Shown here one piece after another: positions 574 through 40,256 of a DNA stretch of 40,256 nt. The notes under the pieces were generated by a model that saw only the letters and a program-made list of their open reading frames with translations, had not been told where the DNA came from and did no database searches. The stretch covers positions 1 through 40,256 of the forward strand of contig JARLHO010000027.1 in assembly GCA_031292215.1 (NCBI GenBank), in the 5' to 3' direction. Numbering within the stretch: the stretch's first letter is position 1; each line of letters opens with the position of its first letter. Origin of the DNA: Syntrophobacteraceae bacterium (GTDB lineage: Bacteria; Desulfobacterota; Syntrophobacteria; Syntrophobacterales; Syntrophobacteraceae). The translations under genes and the position numbers were made by a program.

Positions 574-612
574 ACAGGAAACCTGCTGATGGGCACGGTA
601 GAGCTTCTGGCG

Positions 613-637
613 ATTATCTACACATGCGCCCACTTAT
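613..637. repeat. Isolated MITE terminal-repeat remnant
   Basis: The segment around ACACATGCGCCCACTTA matches the terminal inverted repeat shared by the elements at 26179-26391 and 31482-31698, with a couple of changes in the outer bases (ATTATCTACACATG instead of ATTACCCACACATG). No partner end or internal element sequence is present nearby, so it looks like a scar or a decayed end. Confidence 0.5.
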
Positions 638-25805: not shown

Positions 25806-26178
25806 CGACATATGCTCCTTGCCCGGCGGTCCGAACGGGGGGCCCCGGGTGAATAAACAAAATTAGTAGCCCTGTTCGATCAATTTATTTGACAAAACAG
25901 CGTAAGTCAACAGCATAGGCTATTGTAATTTCCAAGCCTTACACCGGGCGGAGTCGATGTGGTGACACCTTTTTTTACCCAGTTGCGTTCAAGCCCGGCC
26001 GCCACGTCCTCGGACGCGGTTTGACCGGGAAAACTTCGCGTTTCATAGGAGATGCGTCAATGCGAAGGGTTCCACTACGTTCCACCCATCCTTGTATCTT
26101 AAAAGAGCATGGGATTAAGAATAGGGAGGGAGTTTTATCCCAAGTCGAAATCCCCCCGCCCCCCCTTTGAAAAAAAGC
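25806..26178. other. Spacer with folded region
   Basis: No gene. Around 25998-26080 nested complementary stems occur (CCCGG...CCGGG enclosing CGTCC-TC-GGACG, then CTTCGC...GCGAAG), which could be a structured RNA or a decayed element. Just before the MITE are runs of C and A (ATCCCCCCGCCCCCCC) like the inside of the MITE itself. Confidence 0.35.
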
Positions 26179-26391
26179 TTACAATTACCCACACATGCGC
26201 CCACCTATCTCCTTTTGCAAAGTTGCAAATAATGGGGGAGAGCGAGCCCAGCCGGTCCATGCGCGTCATTGCAAGCGGCTGGAGAGTAAATCCCCCCAAC
26301 CCCTTGCAAAAAAGGGGGGCGATCGGGCCAAGCCCCTTTCTTGGGAGTCTCCGCTAAGGGGTAAGTGGGCGCATGTGTGGGTAATTGTCAG
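26179..26391. mobile_element. MITE-like element, copy A (213 bp)
   Basis: The ends carry perfect 24-bp terminal inverted repeats (26181-26204 and 26365-26388; outermost ACAATTACCCACACATGC). No coding capacity. The interior has a GGCTGGAGAGTAAATCCCCC segment and a palindromic CCCC...GGGG centre. Copy B at 31482-31698 is nearly identical over its whole length but in the opposite orientation. No target duplication is seen at this copy. Confidence 0.85.
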
Positions 26392-26719
26392 TATAAGGAT
26401 AGGGAGGGCTAGGGAAATTACCTACTGCGCGATCCGACTCCCCGGTTTTGAGGATTCTAACGATCGGCACGGAAATTCATTTATTTTAGCTGCCTCCATT
26501 TTGCCGTTTCTATTGCCGTTTCTGGTCACCGTTTCTATTGCCGTTTCCGGTTGCCGTTTGGCAGACGCAAATCCCCTGCGGGTATGCTCTACGAAGGTTT
26601 ATAACGGTGTCTGTCCGCAAAACTCCGGGTTGTTGGGGCGGCGGGCGCAATAGTTTTAGCTAAAGGCCACAAGGCCAACGTGGCCGCAACCCAATCTCAT
26701 TTGCGAAAAGGAGTAAGCC
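26392..26719. other. Spacer with short tandem repeats before the phage-type gene
   Basis: Between about 26500 and 26560 the motif TTGCCGTTTC recurs four to five times in imperfect tandem. No supported gene. The last 15 nt hold the ribosome site (AAAAGGAG) of the next gene. Confidence 0.4.
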
Positions 26720-28858
26720 TTGCCAACCATTCCAGCCAATTTTACGCAATCCGTTATGCCCCGTGGGGGGTTGGCCCCTCAGCAGATCCAGGCAAACCCC
26801 GCCGATTTCGGCGCCAGGGTCGGGCAGACACTGGAGCAGAGCGGAAACGAGCTCATGCATCAAGCTGTGGCCCAACAGCAGTTCCAAAACGAAACTGCGG
26901 TAAACGATGTGATCAATAACAAATTTTTCCCTGCTTTTCAGGACCAGTACCAAAAGTATTACGCCCTCCAGGGCAAAGACGCCGTCGATCAGTTGGGAGA
27001 TTATCAACAATCGATGCGAGATCTTGCTTCGCAGTACCGCGCCGGCTTCTCCAGTCCCATGCAGCAACGGTTGTTCGATCAACAGGTGACACGCCGCATA
27101 CAATACGAAATAGGGGGCATGGGCAGATATGCCGACCAGCAAAACAAGGTCTGGCAGGCGCAGACGAGCGAGGCCTCGGTCCAGAGGGCGATCGGTTCGG
27201 CGGCCGACAAGTATAACGATCCGAATATGCTCTACGACGGCGTGCTTTCGACGGCAAAGGAGATCGCCAAATATGGCGCGATGGCCGGCCAGGGCGAGGA
27301 TGTAGTGCAGCAGCGCCAGCAGGCGGCCTGGGATAAGTTGTATTCAACCGTAATCGAGCGGCAGGCAATCGATGCGTCAATGGGACCGCAGGCCGCCAAC
27401 ACCACCTTTCAGGACGGGGTGAGCAAGGGCTTCATCTCAGGTGGGGCGCAGCTAAATATCGCCCGGTATCTACGGCCCATGCTCCAGGTTGCCGAGGCGC
27501 AAAGGGCATACGGAGAAGCCACAGGTCACGGACTGGCCTCCCAAATCGTAAGCGAGGCAAATAACGCGGGCCTGGACCCCACGACAGCTCTTACGATCGC
27601 CACCATCGAATCCGGGCTAAATCCTGCGGCGAAAAATCCGGACTCTTCGGCCCAAGGCCTTTTCCAGCATCTCGATTCGACCTGGCAGGGCCTGGGGGGG
27701 ACCCCGGAAAACCGAAGCGACCCCAACGCTCAAATCGCTATCGGAATAAAGGGTTTGAAAGCGGACCAGGACCAATTGGCGGCGGCTTTGAACCGGGAGC
27801 CGCAGCCCTGGGAGCTCTACCTCGCCCATCAGCAGGGAGTGGCCGGCGCCGAAAAGCTCCTTCAGGCCGATCAGAGCTCCAGGGCGGCAGATATCGCTAG
27901 CGACAAAGCCGTTACCGGTAACGGAGGAACGGAAAAGACAACGGTCGGGCAGTTTCTTTCGATGACAAAAGATCTCTTTGCCCGAAAATCGACGCACTTT
28001 ACCGACCAGGGGCTTCCGACTCCGCAACATATAAGCGAGAACTACGATGCCGGCCTCGAAGCGGTGACCGGGCTAGCCGAGCGGGACCATCCGGGCGACC
28101 CGGCGGCGGTCGAGCAGTACCGAAATGTTTATATCCAGCAGGCGGGGCAGACGATTCGGGCCCGGGAAATTGGGGACCAGGCCAACCGGCAGAGTTTGCG
28201 CTCGGGCTTTGCCGGCCCAAGCGGCGCTAAATCATGGCAGCAGTTCCTGTCCGATCCCGGGCGAGCGCAGTCCTACGCCAACGCTCATGAAACAGACCCG
28301 CAGATATACAACACGGTAAATAAGGCGATTACAGCAAATGCCCTGGGCGCCTGGGATCCTCCCGCGAGCCAAAAGACAAACGATCTGCGAGATGAGCTAA
28401 AAGGAATGCAGGCTACCGACGCCACACGCTTTTCGGGACTCGACCTGAACACGGTTTACGGCGATATGCCGATGCGCGACTGGACCGATCTTTTGCAAAC
28501 GCAAACGGCTATTCGAAATCACGACGACCTGGCAGCCGCAAGAAATGGCGAACTGGTGCATGCCCTGGAGGTCGCCAAACCGTATTTACTCGAGGCGGCC
28601 CAAGCGCCGGATTCTCCCTATCACGGCGCGGACCCGGATCCCGAGTCGTCTGAGGCAACCGCGGTCTATAACCTCTATGCGGGGCGTTTCGGGCGGGCCC
28701 TGGACGACTGGCGCCAAAATAACGGCGGGAAGGTCCCAAGTGATGCCGACTTGAGGCAAATCGCCAGGGGCTTTCTGTTTTCCGAGGATGCGCGAAAGCC
28801 CATGGTCGAGGCCCGCGCAGTCCCTGCGCCGCAGGGCGGCGGCTCGTCCGACTCATAG
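26720..28858 (+). CDS. Phage-type virion protein with lytic transglycosylase domain
   Basis: 712 aa. Residues 1-250 are Gln/Ala-rich helices resembling podovirus internal virion or ejection proteins (QFQNETAVNDVINNKFFPAF, YYALQGKDAVDQLGDYQQSM). Residues about 268-370 are a transglycosylase SLT domain with the catalytic Glu in TIATIESGLNPAAKN (E297), then SSAQGLFQHLDSTW. The rest is Gln/Asp-rich and helical. The start is TTG at 26720 with AAGGAG 6 nt upstream. No capsid, tail, terminase or integrase genes are adjacent, so it is an orphan: a prophage remnant or a domesticated wall hydrolase. No signal peptide. The long intact frame suggests it is still under selection. Confidence 0.8.
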   Translation: MPTIPANFTQSVMPRGGLAPQQIQANPADFGARVGQTLEQSGNELMHQAVAQQQFQNETAVNDVINNKFFPAFQDQYQKYYALQGKDAVDQLGDYQQSMRDLASQYRAGFSSPMQQRLFDQQVTRRIQYEIGGMGRYADQQNKVWQAQTSEASVQRAIGSAADKYNDPNMLYDGVLSTAKEIAKYGAMAGQGEDVVQQRQQAAWDKLYSTVIERQAIDASMGPQAANTTFQDGVSKGFISGGAQLNIARYLRPMLQVAEAQRAYGEATGHGLASQIVSEANNAGLDPTTALTIATIESGLNPAAKNPDSSAQGLFQHLDSTWQGLGGTPENRSDPNAQIAIGIKGLKADQDQLAAALNREPQPWELYLAHQQGVAGAEKLLQADQSSRAADIASDKAVTGNGGTEKTTVGQFLSMTKDLFARKSTHFTDQGLPTPQHISENYDAGLEAVTGLAERDHPGDPAAVEQYRNVYIQQAGQTIRAREIGDQANRQSLRSGFAGPSGAKSWQQFLSDPGRAQSYANAHETDPQIYNTVNKAITANALGAWDPPASQKTNDLRDELKGMQATDATRFSGLDLNTVYGDMPMRDWTDLLQTQTAIRNHDDLAAARNGELVHALEVAKPYLLEAAQAPDSPYHGADPDPESSEATAVYNLYAGRFGRALDDWRQNNGGKVPSDADLRQIARGFLFSEDARKPMVEARAVPAPQGGGSSDS

Positions 28859-28959
28859 CGAGCCAGGGGGCCAATACCCGGAGAGGCTTCAGATAAAGGA
28901 CATTCCCGGCGGGGTAAACGGCAAGAGTAGTGGAGCGGTTTGTGCGAGGCTTTCCCACG

Positions 28960-30066
28960 CTAATTTTGCGGTTTTTTTTCTTTAAGTATCTTTTGGTGCA
29001 GCTCGTGGAAATCGGCCGCAGGCCTTTCTCCCACTCTGTCTTGTCTTACCTCCAGGAAAACCGCCTCAGTCGGGCAGACCGTGGCGCAGACGCCGCAGCC
29101 GATGCACCACTCGGTGTCGGTAACGGGGACGCCCCCTGCCATCTGCACGGCTTGCACCGGGCAAATCACCGCGCACTCACCGCACCCGAGGCAATCGTCG
29201 GGGTCCGTGCGCCTCATGAAATAGGTGGCCATGATGGCGTCGCGGGGAATTTTTCTTCTCCTGATGTTTCCCACGTTCCAGCAGGCGCAGCCGCAACAGT
29301 TGCAGTTGTGCTTTATTTTGCCTTCCGCGTTGTCTACGAAATGAACCAGCCCGGCCTCCTCGGCTAAGCGGATCACTTCGAGGGCCTGATCCCGGGACAA
29401 CTCTTTGGCCAGGCCGCGCTCGATCACAAAATCGGCCATGTCGTCGAATTTCAAGCATACCTCGGTTGGATGGTCGCACCCTCTGCCTGCAAGGTGGTAG
29501 CTGATGCGGCACGGGCAGTGGGCGACCGCTATACGCTCGGCGTTTGCAATCACCTGCTCCATGAGTTGCGTGGGATAGACCGCCTGTAAATCGGATTTTA
29601 TCGACTTTCCAACCGGAATGTAGCGGTACTGCTTGGTTTGGCTGCCGTAGGCTTCCTGCGTAACCTGCCGGTTGAAATACTTTGCCGTAAGCCGTGCCAT
29701 TTTCCGCGCATGGGGCGAGTCTTCGCCCTTCCAAAAAAAGGTCTGGGGAAATCCGAAACCGATGTGCAAAAGGGCATAGCCCCTTGCGCCGTCCGGGGTT
29801 TTTCCCGCAAACAAAAGGCCCTTTGCCCCAAGGCGCTCCAGCGCGGCTTCCAGTTCGTCTCGCTCCATCGCGATCCGCGCTGCGATGTCGTCTACGGTTG
29901 CGGGAGAAAGTGGAATGAGGTCCGTTGGAAGCGCCAAAGCGATCTGCGCTTCCAGGGGGGTGAAATTTTCTTCCAGGATTTCGAGCAAAGAGTCTCGTGC
30001 GGGATAACCCATCCCGACGTTACTCAAGTGATCGGCAAGCCGCCTGTAAATGTCATGTGAGTCCAT
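28960..30066 (-). CDS. Multi-cluster 4Fe-4S ferredoxin-like protein
   Basis: 368 aa. The N-terminal 85 residues look like a winged-helix domain (SPATVDDIAARIAMERDELE). The middle carries extra Cys groups (AHCPCRISYHLAGRGCDHPTE, KHNCNCCGCACWNVGN) that could bind a further Fe-S cluster or zinc. The C-terminus has two classical 4Fe-4S motifs (CLGCGECAVICP and CIGCGVCATVCP). Soluble; no signal peptide or membrane segment. It lies 21 nt downstream of the FmdE-like gene, so the two probably work together. Proteins of this layout are common in Desulfobacterota; the exact electron partner is not known. Confidence 0.85.
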   Translation of the reverse strand: MDSHDIYRRLADHLSNVGMGYPARDSLLEILEENFTPLEAQIALALPTDLIPLSPATVDDIAARIAMERDELEAALERLGAKGLLFAGKTPDGARGYALLHIGFGFPQTFFWKGEDSPHARKMARLTAKYFNRQVTQEAYGSQTKQYRYIPVGKSIKSDLQAVYPTQLMEQVIANAERIAVAHCPCRISYHLAGRGCDHPTEVCLKFDDMADFVIERGLAKELSRDQALEVIRLAEEAGLVHFVDNAEGKIKHNCNCCGCACWNVGNIRRRKIPRDAIMATYFMRRTDPDDCLGCGECAVICPVQAVQMAGGVPVTDTEWCIGCGVCATVCPTEAVFLEVRQDRVGERPAADFHELHQKILKEKKPQN

Positions 30067-30087
30067 CTTAGCCCCACCGCGATTTGT

Positions 30088-30660
30088 TTACTTACCGACA
30101 TAGGGAGATTGGCCCTGGCAGGCCAGGCAAACGGCGCCGTCCTTTTTCGGATAGGGCTCCCCGCATTCGGGGCAGTCCGAGATAGCTCCCCTGCTCGTCT
30201 TGCCAAGATGTTGCGCGGTAACGGTAATGATGCGCTTACTCAGTACGGCTCGGCCGGCCTTTTCCATTTGAGCCAAAAGCCGGTCCTTGTCCTGCTCCCG
30301 CTTGGGTTTTAGCTTGTAGAGCCAGATTGAGATGTCTTCCCAGTCTTTTAGCTTTTCGGGATCCGCAAATACCCTTACGCCTTCACCGTTATACTTGTCA
30401 TACAGGCTCATGGCAAAGAGTCCGAGGTCGATCACTTTGAGCCACCCGTTCCCGATAGTACACGGCGTTAAGAGTTGGATCGCGTCGGGCAGACAGGCGG
30501 GCGTCTCGGAGATGGCGTCAAACAAAACGCCTGCTGCCATTTGGCTAACGGCATAATCCACCATGATCCCACCCAGCAAAAGACCGGGGGCCACGTTGCC
30601 GTGAAAGGCTTCGACCATCTTCAGGTATTCCTCAAAGGAATAGCGGCCAATTTTATCCAT
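30088..30660 (-). CDS. FmdE-like protein with C-terminal zinc ribbon
   Basis: 190 aa. The N-terminal domain fits the FmdE family (named from formylmethanofuran dehydrogenase subunit E): EAFHGNVAPGLLLGGIMVDY at about 17-36. The usual FHGHxCPG metal site reads FHGNVAPG, so a His and the Cys are replaced. Residues about 160-185 are a zinc ribbon (CPECGEPYPK, CLACQG). AGGAAATG precedes the ATG at 30660. First gene of a pair with the ferredoxin. FmdE-type proteins are linked to molybdenum/tungsten enzymes or tetrapyrrole-related chemistry; the function here is unknown. Confidence 0.82.
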   Translation of the reverse strand: MDKIGRYSFEEYLKMVEAFHGNVAPGLLLGGIMVDYAVSQMAAGVLFDAISETPACLPDAIQLLTPCTIGNGWLKVIDLGLFAMSLYDKYNGEGVRVFADPEKLKDWEDISIWLYKLKPKREQDKDRLLAQMEKAGRAVLSKRIITVTAQHLGKTSRGAISDCPECGEPYPKKDGAVCLACQGQSPYVGK

Positions 30661-30918
30661 TACATTTCCTGCTGTGTTGGTTCGAAAGTTCCGCGCGGGC
30701 AGCGCTCGCGCTCAACCCACCCCGATACATCCTGCAAAAGTCAAAACCACCGCGGGCGCCGGCATCCCCGGAGCCCCAAGCCGTGGCGGAAGACGACCAC
30801 AACTGCCTCCATATCCCCTTTTCGCGGATGGTTGGCCGTCATTGTAACATATCCGCGATTGGTTTCCACAACGACGTCGTCAAAATGGCGGACGGAGTCT
30901 GAACAATGGGTCGCTAGC

Positions 30919-30924
30919 TATAAT
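30919..30924 (+). promoter_or_regulatory. Possible -10 box for the candidate RNA
   Basis: A consensus TATAAT lies about 37 nt upstream of the folded segment. No good -35 is visible at normal spacing, so support is weak. Confidence 0.3.
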
Positions 30925-30955
30925 ACCGCTACAATGTAACTTGGCTGAAAGGGGG

Positions 30956-31073
30956 TGTCAATGATTTTGAGTGGACCGCTTGTCACGGGATTCTTCTATC
31001 CGACCCCGAAATGGGCTGACTTGACCTGTGTCAAGGACCGATCGCGCAAGAGTCGATAGGCTCAAAATCACTG
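30956..31073 (+). ncRNA. Candidate structured RNA or leader (unclassified)
   Basis: TGATTTTGAG (30962-30971) and CTCAAAATCA (31061-31070) are exact complements 89 nt apart and would close a multi-branched fold. Inside lie small hairpins: CGGGAT...ATCCG, CCC-GAAAT-GGG, and CTTGAC-CTGT-GTCAAG (about 31020-31035), plus ATCG...CGAT. It sits about 60 nt upstream of the small membrane protein at 31133, so it could be a riboswitch-like leader or a small RNA. I cannot match it to a known class. Confidence 0.3.
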
Positions 31074-31132
31074 AATGTTATTTACGAATTTGCCTGTGAG
31101 CGATAGATCGGTATCTATTGAAAGGCCTTACT

Positions 31133-31492
31133 TTGAAAAAATCCGTTCGCAAGTTTCCTGCTGTCTTAAGCCTGGTCCTCCTTGCCGCTCATTTTTTGCG
31201 CGCGCAAAGTCTTTTCTTTGTGGCCGTAAATATTGGCCTCACACCGCTTCTTTTCTGGAAAAAACGGTGGCTCACTCAGATTGTCAGGATTTACCTCGTC
31301 TTGGGCTGCGGTCTGTGGGTCTATACGGCGTCGATGATAGTCATGGAGCGCGAAGCGCTGGGGCTCCCCTTCGCCGGAGCTGCGATCATCCTTGGATCGG
31401 TGGCGATCTTAACCCTTGCAAGCGCTCTTTTGGCTGCGCCGGAAGAGTCGGTTCCAGCCCGAACACAGCTCGGCGTAAAAGCTGACAATTAG
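31133..31492 (+). CDS. Small membrane protein, end altered by a MITE
   Basis: 119 aa from a TTG at 31133 (AAAGG 7 nt upstream; an earlier TTG at 31118 lacks a site). Three to four hydrophobic segments: FPAVLSLVLLAAHFLRAQSL, FFVAVNIGLTPLLFW, IVRIYLVLGCGLWVYTASMI and FAGAAIILGSVAILTLASAL. No family is named with confidence. The last codons (ADN, stop) come from the end of MITE copy B, which begins at 31482, so the original C-terminus was cut or replaced; the change affects only the hydrophilic tail. Confidence 0.65.
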   Translation: MKKSVRKFPAVLSLVLLAAHFLRAQSLFFVAVNIGLTPLLFWKKRWLTQIVRIYLVLGCGLWVYTASMIVMEREALGLPFAGAAIILGSVAILTLASALLAAPEESVPARTQLGVKADN

Positions 31493-31698
31493 CCACACAT
31501 GCGCCCACTTACCCCTTAGCGGAGACTCCCAAGAAAGGGGCTTGGCCTGATCGCCCCCCTTTTTTGCAAAAGGGGGTTGGGGGGATTTACTCTCCAGCCG
31601 CTTGCAATGACGCGCATGGACCGGCTGGGCTCGCTCGCCCCCCTTATTTGCAACTTTGCAAAAAGGAGATAGATGGGCGCATGTGTGGGTAATTGTAA
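31482..31698. mobile_element. MITE-like element, copy B (217 bp, inverted relative to copy A)
   Basis: The same element as 26179-26391, in reverse orientation, with only a few substitutions and small indels. The terminal repeat matches ACAATTA-CCACACATGCGC on the left and its complement on the right. The 10-bp direct repeat GGCGTAAAAG flanks it exactly (31472-31481 and 31699-31708), a good target duplication. No open frame of its own. Confidence 0.88.
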
Positions 31699-31772
31699 GG
31701 CGTAAAAGGGGGGGGGCCATTAACCCCGGTAAGGGCCATGGTTTGGAATCTCTCCTCCACCCTCTTGGCCGC

Positions 31773-40054: not shown

Positions 40055-40132
40055 ACGAAAAATCAGATTAGCATTGAGAGGCCTGCTAGTCAAGCCCGCG
40101 TGTGGTCTGATTTGCATTTTTGAGCGGCGTGT
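40055..40132. other. Spacer upstream of tRNA-Pro
   Basis: Should carry the tRNA promoter on the minus strand. TTGACTAG (complement of CTAGTCAA at 40086-40093) followed on that strand by AATGCTAAT (complement of 40068-40076) gives a plausible -35/-10 pair. Confidence 0.4.
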
Positions 40133-40256
40133 CTGGCGCGGCGTGTCGCCGCAGACGGGTTGCCAAGCCCCGACCTGCCCGACTGGCGCGGCGTGTCGCC
40201 GCAGACGGGTTGCCAAGCCCCGACCTGCCCGACTGGCGCGGCGTGTCGCCGCAGAC
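40133..40256. repeat. 50-bp tandem repeat, cut by the window edge
   Basis: A 50-bp unit beginning CTGGCGCGGCGTGTCGCC is repeated exactly at 40133, 40183 and 40233 (third copy incomplete). The unit contains GGCG...CGCC hairpin potential. There are no variable spacers, so it is not a CRISPR array. It begins about 80 bp upstream of tRNA-Pro. Confidence 0.9.

What the first reader, a model, noticed from the sequence alone, without database searches (positions are those of the whole stretch)
26179..31698. A MITE-like family: two near-identical inverted copies 5 kb apart
26179-26391 and 31482-31698 are almost the same over 210 bp, in opposite orientation, each bounded by about 24-bp terminal inverted repeats and with no gene. 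The terminal sequence does not match that of the resident IS (ATGTCCG ends), so some other transposase mobilises them. Inverted copies can also flip the 5.1 kb between them, which holds the phage-type gene, the ferredoxin/FmdE pair and the membrane protein gene.
Basis: seen in the sequence. Interest (0 to 1): 0.6.

Follow-up and report, generated by a model that had tools for sequence, protein, structure and literature searches.

The report
Tn5-type MITEs inserted in hairpin repeats
The two look-alike segments are copies of a small, gene-less jumping element found at roughly a hundred places in this bacterium's genome, most likely moved by a Tn5-like enzyme and often dropped beside runs of C or G or into hairpin repeats, one of which it carries itself.

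Summary
Window 26178-26391 and 31482-31699 are inverted copies (97.7% over aligned bases) of a gene-less element with 26-bp terminal repeats. Fetched parts of the 4.89-Mb genome hold 58 two-ended elements and 62 single ends, about one per 41 kb, so two in 40 kb is ordinary. Of 56 evaluable elements 30 have a 9-bp target duplication (at least 8/9). The second window copy has a perfect one and the first has none. The mobiliser is most likely an IS4-family, IS50/Tn5-group transposase: a congener carries a multi-copy IS with nearly the same ends, 9-bp duplications and a Tn5 dimerisation domain coded just inside one end. No such transposase was found in the window's own assembly. Targets: 17 of 23 duplication-bearing sites outside hairpins lie after a C-tract or before a G-tract (control 513 of 5000), and 43 of 120 places abut half of a C6/G6 hairpin (control 268 of 20000), a kind of hairpin the element also carries inside. 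MITEs, and IS4 elements in REPs, are known; an element carrying its own kind of landing site is the less usual reading, inferred only. The proposed 5.1-kb inversion could not be tested.

The parts
26178..26391 (+). MITE copy 1 (214 bp)
   Evidence: 99.1% to the 35-copy consensus; no target duplication (4/9)
26178..26203 (+). left terminal inverted repeat of copy 1
   Evidence: 25/26 against the other end
26366..26391 (-). right terminal inverted repeat of copy 1
26288..26336 (+). inner C/G hairpin with its tail in copy 1 (hairpin core 26295-26319)
26148..26177 (+). half of a hairpin repeat abutting copy 1 on its left; the other half is absent on the right
   Evidence: blastn 26148-26177 against the inner hairpin, 90%
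31482..31699 (-). MITE copy 2 (218 bp), inverted relative to copy 1
   Evidence: 98.2% to the consensus
31482..31507 (+). terminal inverted repeat of copy 2, low-coordinate end
   Evidence: 24/26 against the other end
31674..31699 (-). terminal inverted repeat of copy 2, high-coordinate end
31473..31481 (+). 9-bp target duplication GCGTAAAAG, first copy
31700..31708 (+). 9-bp target duplication GCGTAAAAG, second copy, followed by a G-tract
31554..31579 (-). inner C/G hairpin core of copy 2
31118..31492 (+). small membrane-protein-like gene whose last residues and stop codon lie in the terminal repeat of copy 2
   Evidence: related frames in G005, G007, G009, G010
607..632 (+). possible degenerate lone element end (doubtful)
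   Evidence: blastn 607-636, 86.7%, E 4e-4

Best explanation
A non-autonomous MITE family of the IS4 family, IS50/Tn5 group. Its 26-bp ends (CT[T/G]ACAATTACCCACACATGCGCCCA) are recognised in trans by a Tn5-like transposase, which moves the element and leaves a 9-bp target duplication. Preferred targets are pyrimidine-purine 9-mers (about CTYYNRRAG) that follow a C-tract and/or precede a G-tract; the strongest form of that target is the loop of a C6/G6 hairpin repeat scattered through this genome, and the element carries a hairpin of this kind inside. Shown here: ends, duplications, copy number, target bias, association with the hairpin, and a congener's multi-copy IS with nearly the same ends, 9-bp duplications and a Tn5-type C-terminus. 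Inferred: that such a transposase acts or acted in the window's own cell; that the hairpin association is target choice; and that many single-ended copies come from recombination between inner and outer hairpins.
For: 58 two-ended elements and 62 single ends; 9-bp duplications at 8/9 or better in 30 of 56 evaluable. Ends match the Tn5 outside end at 13/19, reached by 57 of 200000 shuffles (outside end seen in PMC3347997). Congener G001: 11 IS ends with the same first 17 bases, each within about 210 bp of a contig end; PF02281 43.9 bits, cut-off 26.7, coded inside one kind of end; duplications GATTCAAAC (L068/L133) and AGCTTTATC (L227 with any of L072, L116, L126), 9/9. C/G-tract targets: 17 of 23 against 513 of 5000, opposite orientation 1 of 23. 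Hairpin halves at 20 of 58 two-ended elements and 23 of 62 single ends, against 268 of 20000 random positions.
Against: No Tn5-type transposase was found in the window's own genome: PF14706 none; PF02281 three sub-cut-off hits, the best (22.1 bits) without such ends; three PF01609 loci without such ends. The congener IS is known only from its ends. 26 of 56 elements lack a good duplication, copy 1 included. The tract control is not matched for intergenic position, only partly answered by the orientation result. Palindromy around non-hairpin sites is only mildly raised.
Confidence: 0.83

Rival explanations
1. The pair is an inverted segmental duplication, or the two ends of one composite transposon, not two independent insertions.
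For: The two copies are close, inverted and 97.7% identical.
Against: Copy 2 has its own perfect 9-bp duplication. The outer flanks of the pair, GAAAAAAAG and GCGTAAAAG, agree at only 6/9 by eye (flanks). Other copies are as similar to each of them (copy 1 is closest to C172:545 at 98.6%, copy 2 to C93:19863 at 98.1%).
Confidence: 0.04
2. The mobiliser is a transposase of another family whose ends happen to resemble those of Tn5.
For: No transposase is found with these ends in the own genome, and the congener's IS is not assembled in full.
Against: A Tn5 dimerisation domain lies directly inside the same kind of end in G001, together with 9-bp duplications.
Confidence: 0.1
3. The hairpin association is not target choice: the hairpins are remains of older elements of the same superfamily, and elements and hairpins share intergenic places or arise together by recombination.
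For: 11 of 21 sampled hairpins have element-like arms, and one of the other 10 (L202) has an end at 6 mismatches. Long elements hold two hairpins with shared sequence between them.
Against: Hairpin-loop insertions carry 9-bp duplications of the loop, such as CTTTGAAAA. Free-standing hairpins exist, and G005 has 18 strict hairpins with no element end at up to 2 mismatches. The C/G-tract bias also holds outside hairpins.
Confidence: 0.25
4. The two inverted copies work as an invertible switch for the 5.1 kb between them.
For: Geometry only: two about 215-bp inverted repeats at 97.7%.
Against: No read data. The interval is not kept with its flanks in the listed congener matches. Many equally similar copies elsewhere would compete for recombination.
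Confidence: 0.04

Closest known systems
Tn5/IS50 (IS4 family)
   Same: 9-bp duplication; ends alike at 13 of 19 bases to the outside end; target centre T/Y...R/A as in AGNTYWRANCT (PMC3046479, passage)
   Different: No transposase in the element; duplications mostly begin with C and end with G or A, where the Tn5 rule has G and C; C/G-tract context
ISRm22 of Sinorhizobium meliloti (IS4 family)
   Same: Inserted in REP palindromes at the axis, 10 of 10 copies (PMC1525189, passages)
   Different: Autonomous IS; 6-bp direct repeats; no REP inside the element is mentioned in the passages read
QMITE2 of Coxiella burnetii
   Same: MITE of 150-190 bp with 7-11 nt direct repeats that contains a REP serving as an insertion target; truncated copies look like REPs (PMC5896051, passages)
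   Different: There the REP is hit by IS1111, an IS; here it is the MITE family itself that is found in such hairpins
Chunjie of Geobacter uraniireducens
   Same: 235-bp MITE, 38 copies of 178-235 bp with conserved ends and direct repeats plus 57 partial copies (PMC10969869, passage; original paper not read)
   Different: Sequence not compared here; no hairpin target in the passage read

Membership tests
MITE | short, no transposase gene | tested here: met
   214 and 218 bp, only short mechanical frames across them
MITE | terminal inverted repeats | tested here: met
   26 bp, 25/26 and 24/26
MITE | target-site duplication | tested here: met
   9 bp in 30 of 56 evaluable elements; window copy 2 yes, copy 1 no
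MITE | many dispersed copies | tested here: met
   58 two-ended elements and 62 single ends; 181 ends
MITE | ends shared with an autonomous IS | tested here: inconclusive
   Shared with a congener's IS known from its ends only; none found in the own genome
IS4 family, IS50/Tn5 group (as mobiliser) | Tn5-type transposase between these ends | tested here: inconclusive
   PF02281 C-terminal domain inside G001 ends; full gene not seen
IS4 family, IS50/Tn5 group (as mobiliser) | 9-bp duplication | tested here: met
IS4 family, IS50/Tn5 group (as mobiliser) | transposition by that enzyme | not testable with these tools
   needs an assay
composite transposon (two copies plus 5.1 kb) | target duplication outside the two outer ends | tested here: not met
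   GAAAAAAAG against GCGTAAAAG, 6/9 by eye; copy 2 has its own 9/9 (flanks)
REPIN/RAYT system | repeat moved by an IS200-type (Y1) transposase beside it | tested here: inconclusive
   An IS200/IS605-type gene lies at C102, with no such hairpin in the 2.5 kb looked at; a link to the free hairpins is not shown

The most novel reading that the evidence does not exclude
A self-seeding MITE: a Tn5-type transposase aims at loops of C/G-tract palindromes, and the element has captured such a palindrome, so each insertion uses up one landing site and brings a new one. The family thereby keeps up its own supply of targets, and recombination between inner and outer hairpins leaves single-ended scars. That the congener's IS hits the 9-bp loop of an unrelated palindrome (GGTGGGCAC-9-GTGCCCACC, stem 9/9, put together from two contigs), next to a repeat seen at 9 of its 11 ends (by eye), suggests that palindrome loops as such are the target of this transposase group.
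Probability: 0.33. Interest if true: 0.6.

Novelty: new member of a known kind. Interest (0 to 1): 0.42.

Why it matters
It turns a chance-looking repeat pair into a genome-wide family with a named type of transposase and a measurable target rule. If the element really carries its own landing site, it is a simple natural case for asking how a small genomic parasite keeps supplying itself with insertion sites. It also bears on assembly: 27 contigs have an element within 400 bp of an end, out of 30 element-bearing contigs whose lengths I entered (177 contigs in all).

Tried and rejected
Plasmid collection, blastn with the element: no match. One viral-collection scan with an 18-base end pattern: 2 contigs whose inner sequence does not resemble the element, taken as chance. 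Own-genome PF01609 loci L075-L077: no end at up to 8 mismatches in 26. The PF14706 hits in G001, G020 and G036 (3 of 39 genomes, own genome none) belong to another IS type without these ends; the G001 frame joins a DruA-like part to a Tn5-like transposase. The best own-genome PF02281 hit (C175:83142, 22.1 bits, below the cut-off of 26.7) reads like the C-terminus of that other type and has no such end. A lone IS-like end at C80:7631 was followed to the contig end; among its open frames I saw no transposase by eye and ran no family search on them. Palindromy around insertion points outside hairpins is only mildly raised (mean 5.26 against 4.65 complementary bases of 10, p 0.004), much weaker than the C/G-tract signal. 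Inversion could not be tested through congeners. A search downstream of the single ends for a matching duplication found one clear partner, C71. Papers: 'Syntrophobacter' with 'miniature inverted-repeat' gave none; searches for REP-targeted IS and MITEs and for IS4/IS50-type MITEs gave the precedents cited. I make no claim that the family is unpublished.

Counts and what was dropped: stretches were fetched around ends listed, whose listings are capped, so a few ends may be missing (181; 178 at up to 6 mismatches of 26 in my stretches). The 62 single ends include ends of some elements whose other end is cut by the contig or too changed to score, and two pairs of neighbouring ends (C46, C167), so '120 places' is approximate. 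Two pairs at contig starts have no left flank and are outside the 56. One of the 30 duplications was dropped for a short left flank. Control positions lie at least 650 bp from any element end and are not matched for intergenic position; those are not kept away from elements. The hairpin rule is a regular expression and by eye misses some cases. The hairpin sample is 21 sites from the first 28 loci of one listing. An earlier count said 177 ends and 55-56 evaluable pairs; 178 and 56 are right.
Full report
WHAT IS THERE. The two segments are real: 26178-26391 (214 bp) and 31482-31699 (218 bp), inverted, 97.7% identical over aligned bases with two small gaps. Each ends in a 26-bp terminal inverted repeat (25/26 and 24/26). 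Only short mechanical frames cross them, and no Rfam family matches in them. The first copy folds as single-stranded DNA at -63 kcal/mol against -33.2 for shuffles (z -8.3, 0 of 200).

A GENOME-WIDE FAMILY. The window is contig C127 of a 4.89-Mb assembly in 177 contigs. That call scored 40 of 261 first-look candidates, and all 40 are near-full matches (192-231 query bases, 90-100%), so 40 is a lower bound. The 20-base end occurs 181 times at up to 2 mismatches, 0 for the reversed pattern. In 114 merged stretches (249 kb) I find 178 ends at up to 6 mismatches: 58 two-ended elements and 62 single ends; in the same stretches read backwards the lowest count is 8 mismatches. Of the 58, 36 measure 202-219 bp, 9 are shorter (126-166 bp) and 13 longer (298-558 bp). 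Thirty-five copies of 205-225 bp average 96.6% to their consensus and 94.0% to each other. One place per about 41 kb makes two in a 40-kb window ordinary. Contigs of two congeners match public records by sequence and length: G001 is Deltaproteobacteria bacterium DX1.bin82, and G007 Syntrophobacteraceae bacterium MAG_BA69, so the host is probably of that group.

TRANSPOSITION. Thirty of 56 evaluable two-ended elements have a 9-bp flanking duplication (19 perfect, 11 with one mismatch). Copy 2 has GCGTAAAAG on both sides; copy 1 has none (4/9). One site fits 10 bp better and one 8 bp. The duplications resemble CTYYNRRAG, alike in its centre to the Tn5 target AGNTYWRANCT (PMC3046479, passage).

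THE LIKELY TRANSPOSASE. The ends match the Tn5 outside end at 13 of 19 bases, reached by 57 of 200000 shuffles (outside end in PMC3347997, passages). In congener G001 there are 11 ends at up to 2 mismatches, of two kinds (6 and 5), each within about 210 bp of a contig end, as expected for a collapsed multi-copy IS. Inside one kind lies part of a Tn5 dimerisation domain (PF02281, 43.9 bits, cut-off 26.7), with the stop codon about 30 bases from the outer end (by eye). The two kinds pair through 9-bp duplications: GATTCAAAC (L068/L133), and AGCTTTATC (L227 with any of L072, L116 or L126), 9/9. AGCTTTATC is the 9-bp loop of a palindrome GGTGGGCAC/GTGCCCACC (stem 9/9); this site was put together from two contigs, so it is a composite. 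Nine of the 11 G001 ends lie beside this GGTGGG repeat (by eye). In G025, of another genus, 4 similar ends (1 mismatch) lie near contig ends, each of the flanks that I saw with CCCTCTCC. In the window's own genome no such transposase was found. Elements sit at many contig ends there, so a repeated IS could have dropped out of the assembly. This is the main gap.

TARGETS. Of 29 sites with a duplication and long enough flanks, 23 lie outside the hairpin class. Of these, 17 have CCCC within 14 bases before or GGGG within 14 bases after the duplication, against 513 of 5000 random positions (Fisher p 1e-12); tracts in the opposite orientation occur at 1 of 23. The control is not matched for intergenic position; the orientation result speaks against composition alone. 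Copy 2 of the window is one of the 17, with GGGGGGGG after its duplication. The extreme case is a hairpin repeat, CCCCCCTTTGAAAAAAAGGGGGG and variants: 20 of 58 two-ended elements and 23 of 62 single ends abut half of it, against 268 of 20000 random positions of the sampled DNA. Copy 1 abuts such a half on its left (26148-26177), and the other half is absent on its right. The element carries one such hairpin inside (26288-26336; 31554-31579).

HOW HAIRPIN AND ELEMENT RELATE. The strict hairpin pattern occurs 153 times here, 18 times in G005, once in G007 and not in the eight other genomes of the genus searched, where the reversed control gave 3 in G002; weaker matches to the hairpin part exist in G003 and G009. 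G005 has no element end at up to 2 mismatches. Of 21 hairpins sampled, 10 show no arm-like sequence by my threshold, though one of these (L202) has an end at 6 mismatches; 11 have arms. So a hairpin repeat exists apart from this element, but part of the landing sites are remains of related elements. Many single ends run through the inner hairpin into sequence that elsewhere flanks free hairpins, which fits recombination between inner and outer hairpins; long elements holding the same sequence between two hairpins offer another origin for some. At two places (C46, C167) one end lies at a hairpin shortly after another end.

THE INTERVAL. The 5.1 kb holds a frame with an SLT domain (26720-28858), a ferredoxin-like gene (28960-30066, minus), an FmdE gene (30088-30660, minus) and a small membrane-protein-like gene (31118-31492; no Pfam or NCBIfam match) with related frames in G005, G007, G009 and G010. 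The last ends inside the terminal repeat of copy 2; with the flanks joined the frame would run to 174 codons instead of 124. In the congeners the listed matches to the interval and to its flanks fall on different contigs, so orientation cannot be compared.

COMPARISON. MITEs of this size and number are known in bacteria (PMC10969869, passages). An IS4-family element inserting at the axis of REP palindromes is known: ISRm22, 10 of 10 copies, with 6-bp repeats (PMC1525189, passages). A MITE holding a REP that is an insertion target is known: QMITE2, hit by IS1111 (PMC5896051, passages). In the passages seen I did not meet a MITE that inserts into the kind of palindrome it carries. That combination is the interesting part and rests on association, not on a test.

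VERDICT. Observation confirmed; interpretation right in kind (a MITE moved in trans), untested for inversion. New member of a known kind, with a target rule worth a test.

Noticed in passing
L140 2-1579 (G001); similar frames in L141 (G020) and L142 (G036): One open frame joins a DruA-like domain (PF14236, 38.8 bits, cut-off 27; Pfam run on L140 only) to a Tn5-like transposase (PF14706), in another IS type with ends near CTGCCCTTTACCC.
   Followed up: partly
window 26497-26565: A TGCCGTTTC-rich stretch upstream of the SLT-domain frame matches many places in several congeners at 80-89% and, by eye, the stretch after C80:7631 of the own genome.
   Followed up: no
window 25970-26177: Further repeats left of copy 1: matches at many places in G007 and G001, and with copy 1 at C81 and C122 of the own genome at 86-87%.
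   Followed up: no
L222 244-786, minus strand (G000 C102): IS200/IS605-type transposase gene (NF033573, 56.1 bits, cut-off 55), RAYT-like by my reading; no C/G hairpin found in the 2.5 kb looked at.
   Followed up: partly
G000 C30 (L044) and C120:25223-25562 (L164): A second small inverted-repeat element, CAATACTGTTCACTTAA...TTAAGTGAACAGTATTG, lies inside the inner hairpin of the MITE; a related end occurs at C121.
   Followed up: no
window 31118-31492: The terminal repeat of copy 2 supplies the last residues and the stop codon of a membrane-protein-like gene; a base that differs from the family's usual end makes the TAG.
   Followed up: partly
window 40122-40256: A 50-bp tandem repeat runs to the contig end; a similar stretch lies inside the long element at C26:21904 (by eye).
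   Followed up: no
window 607-632: A lone, changed copy of the element end without a partner; may be a relic or chance.
   Followed up: partly
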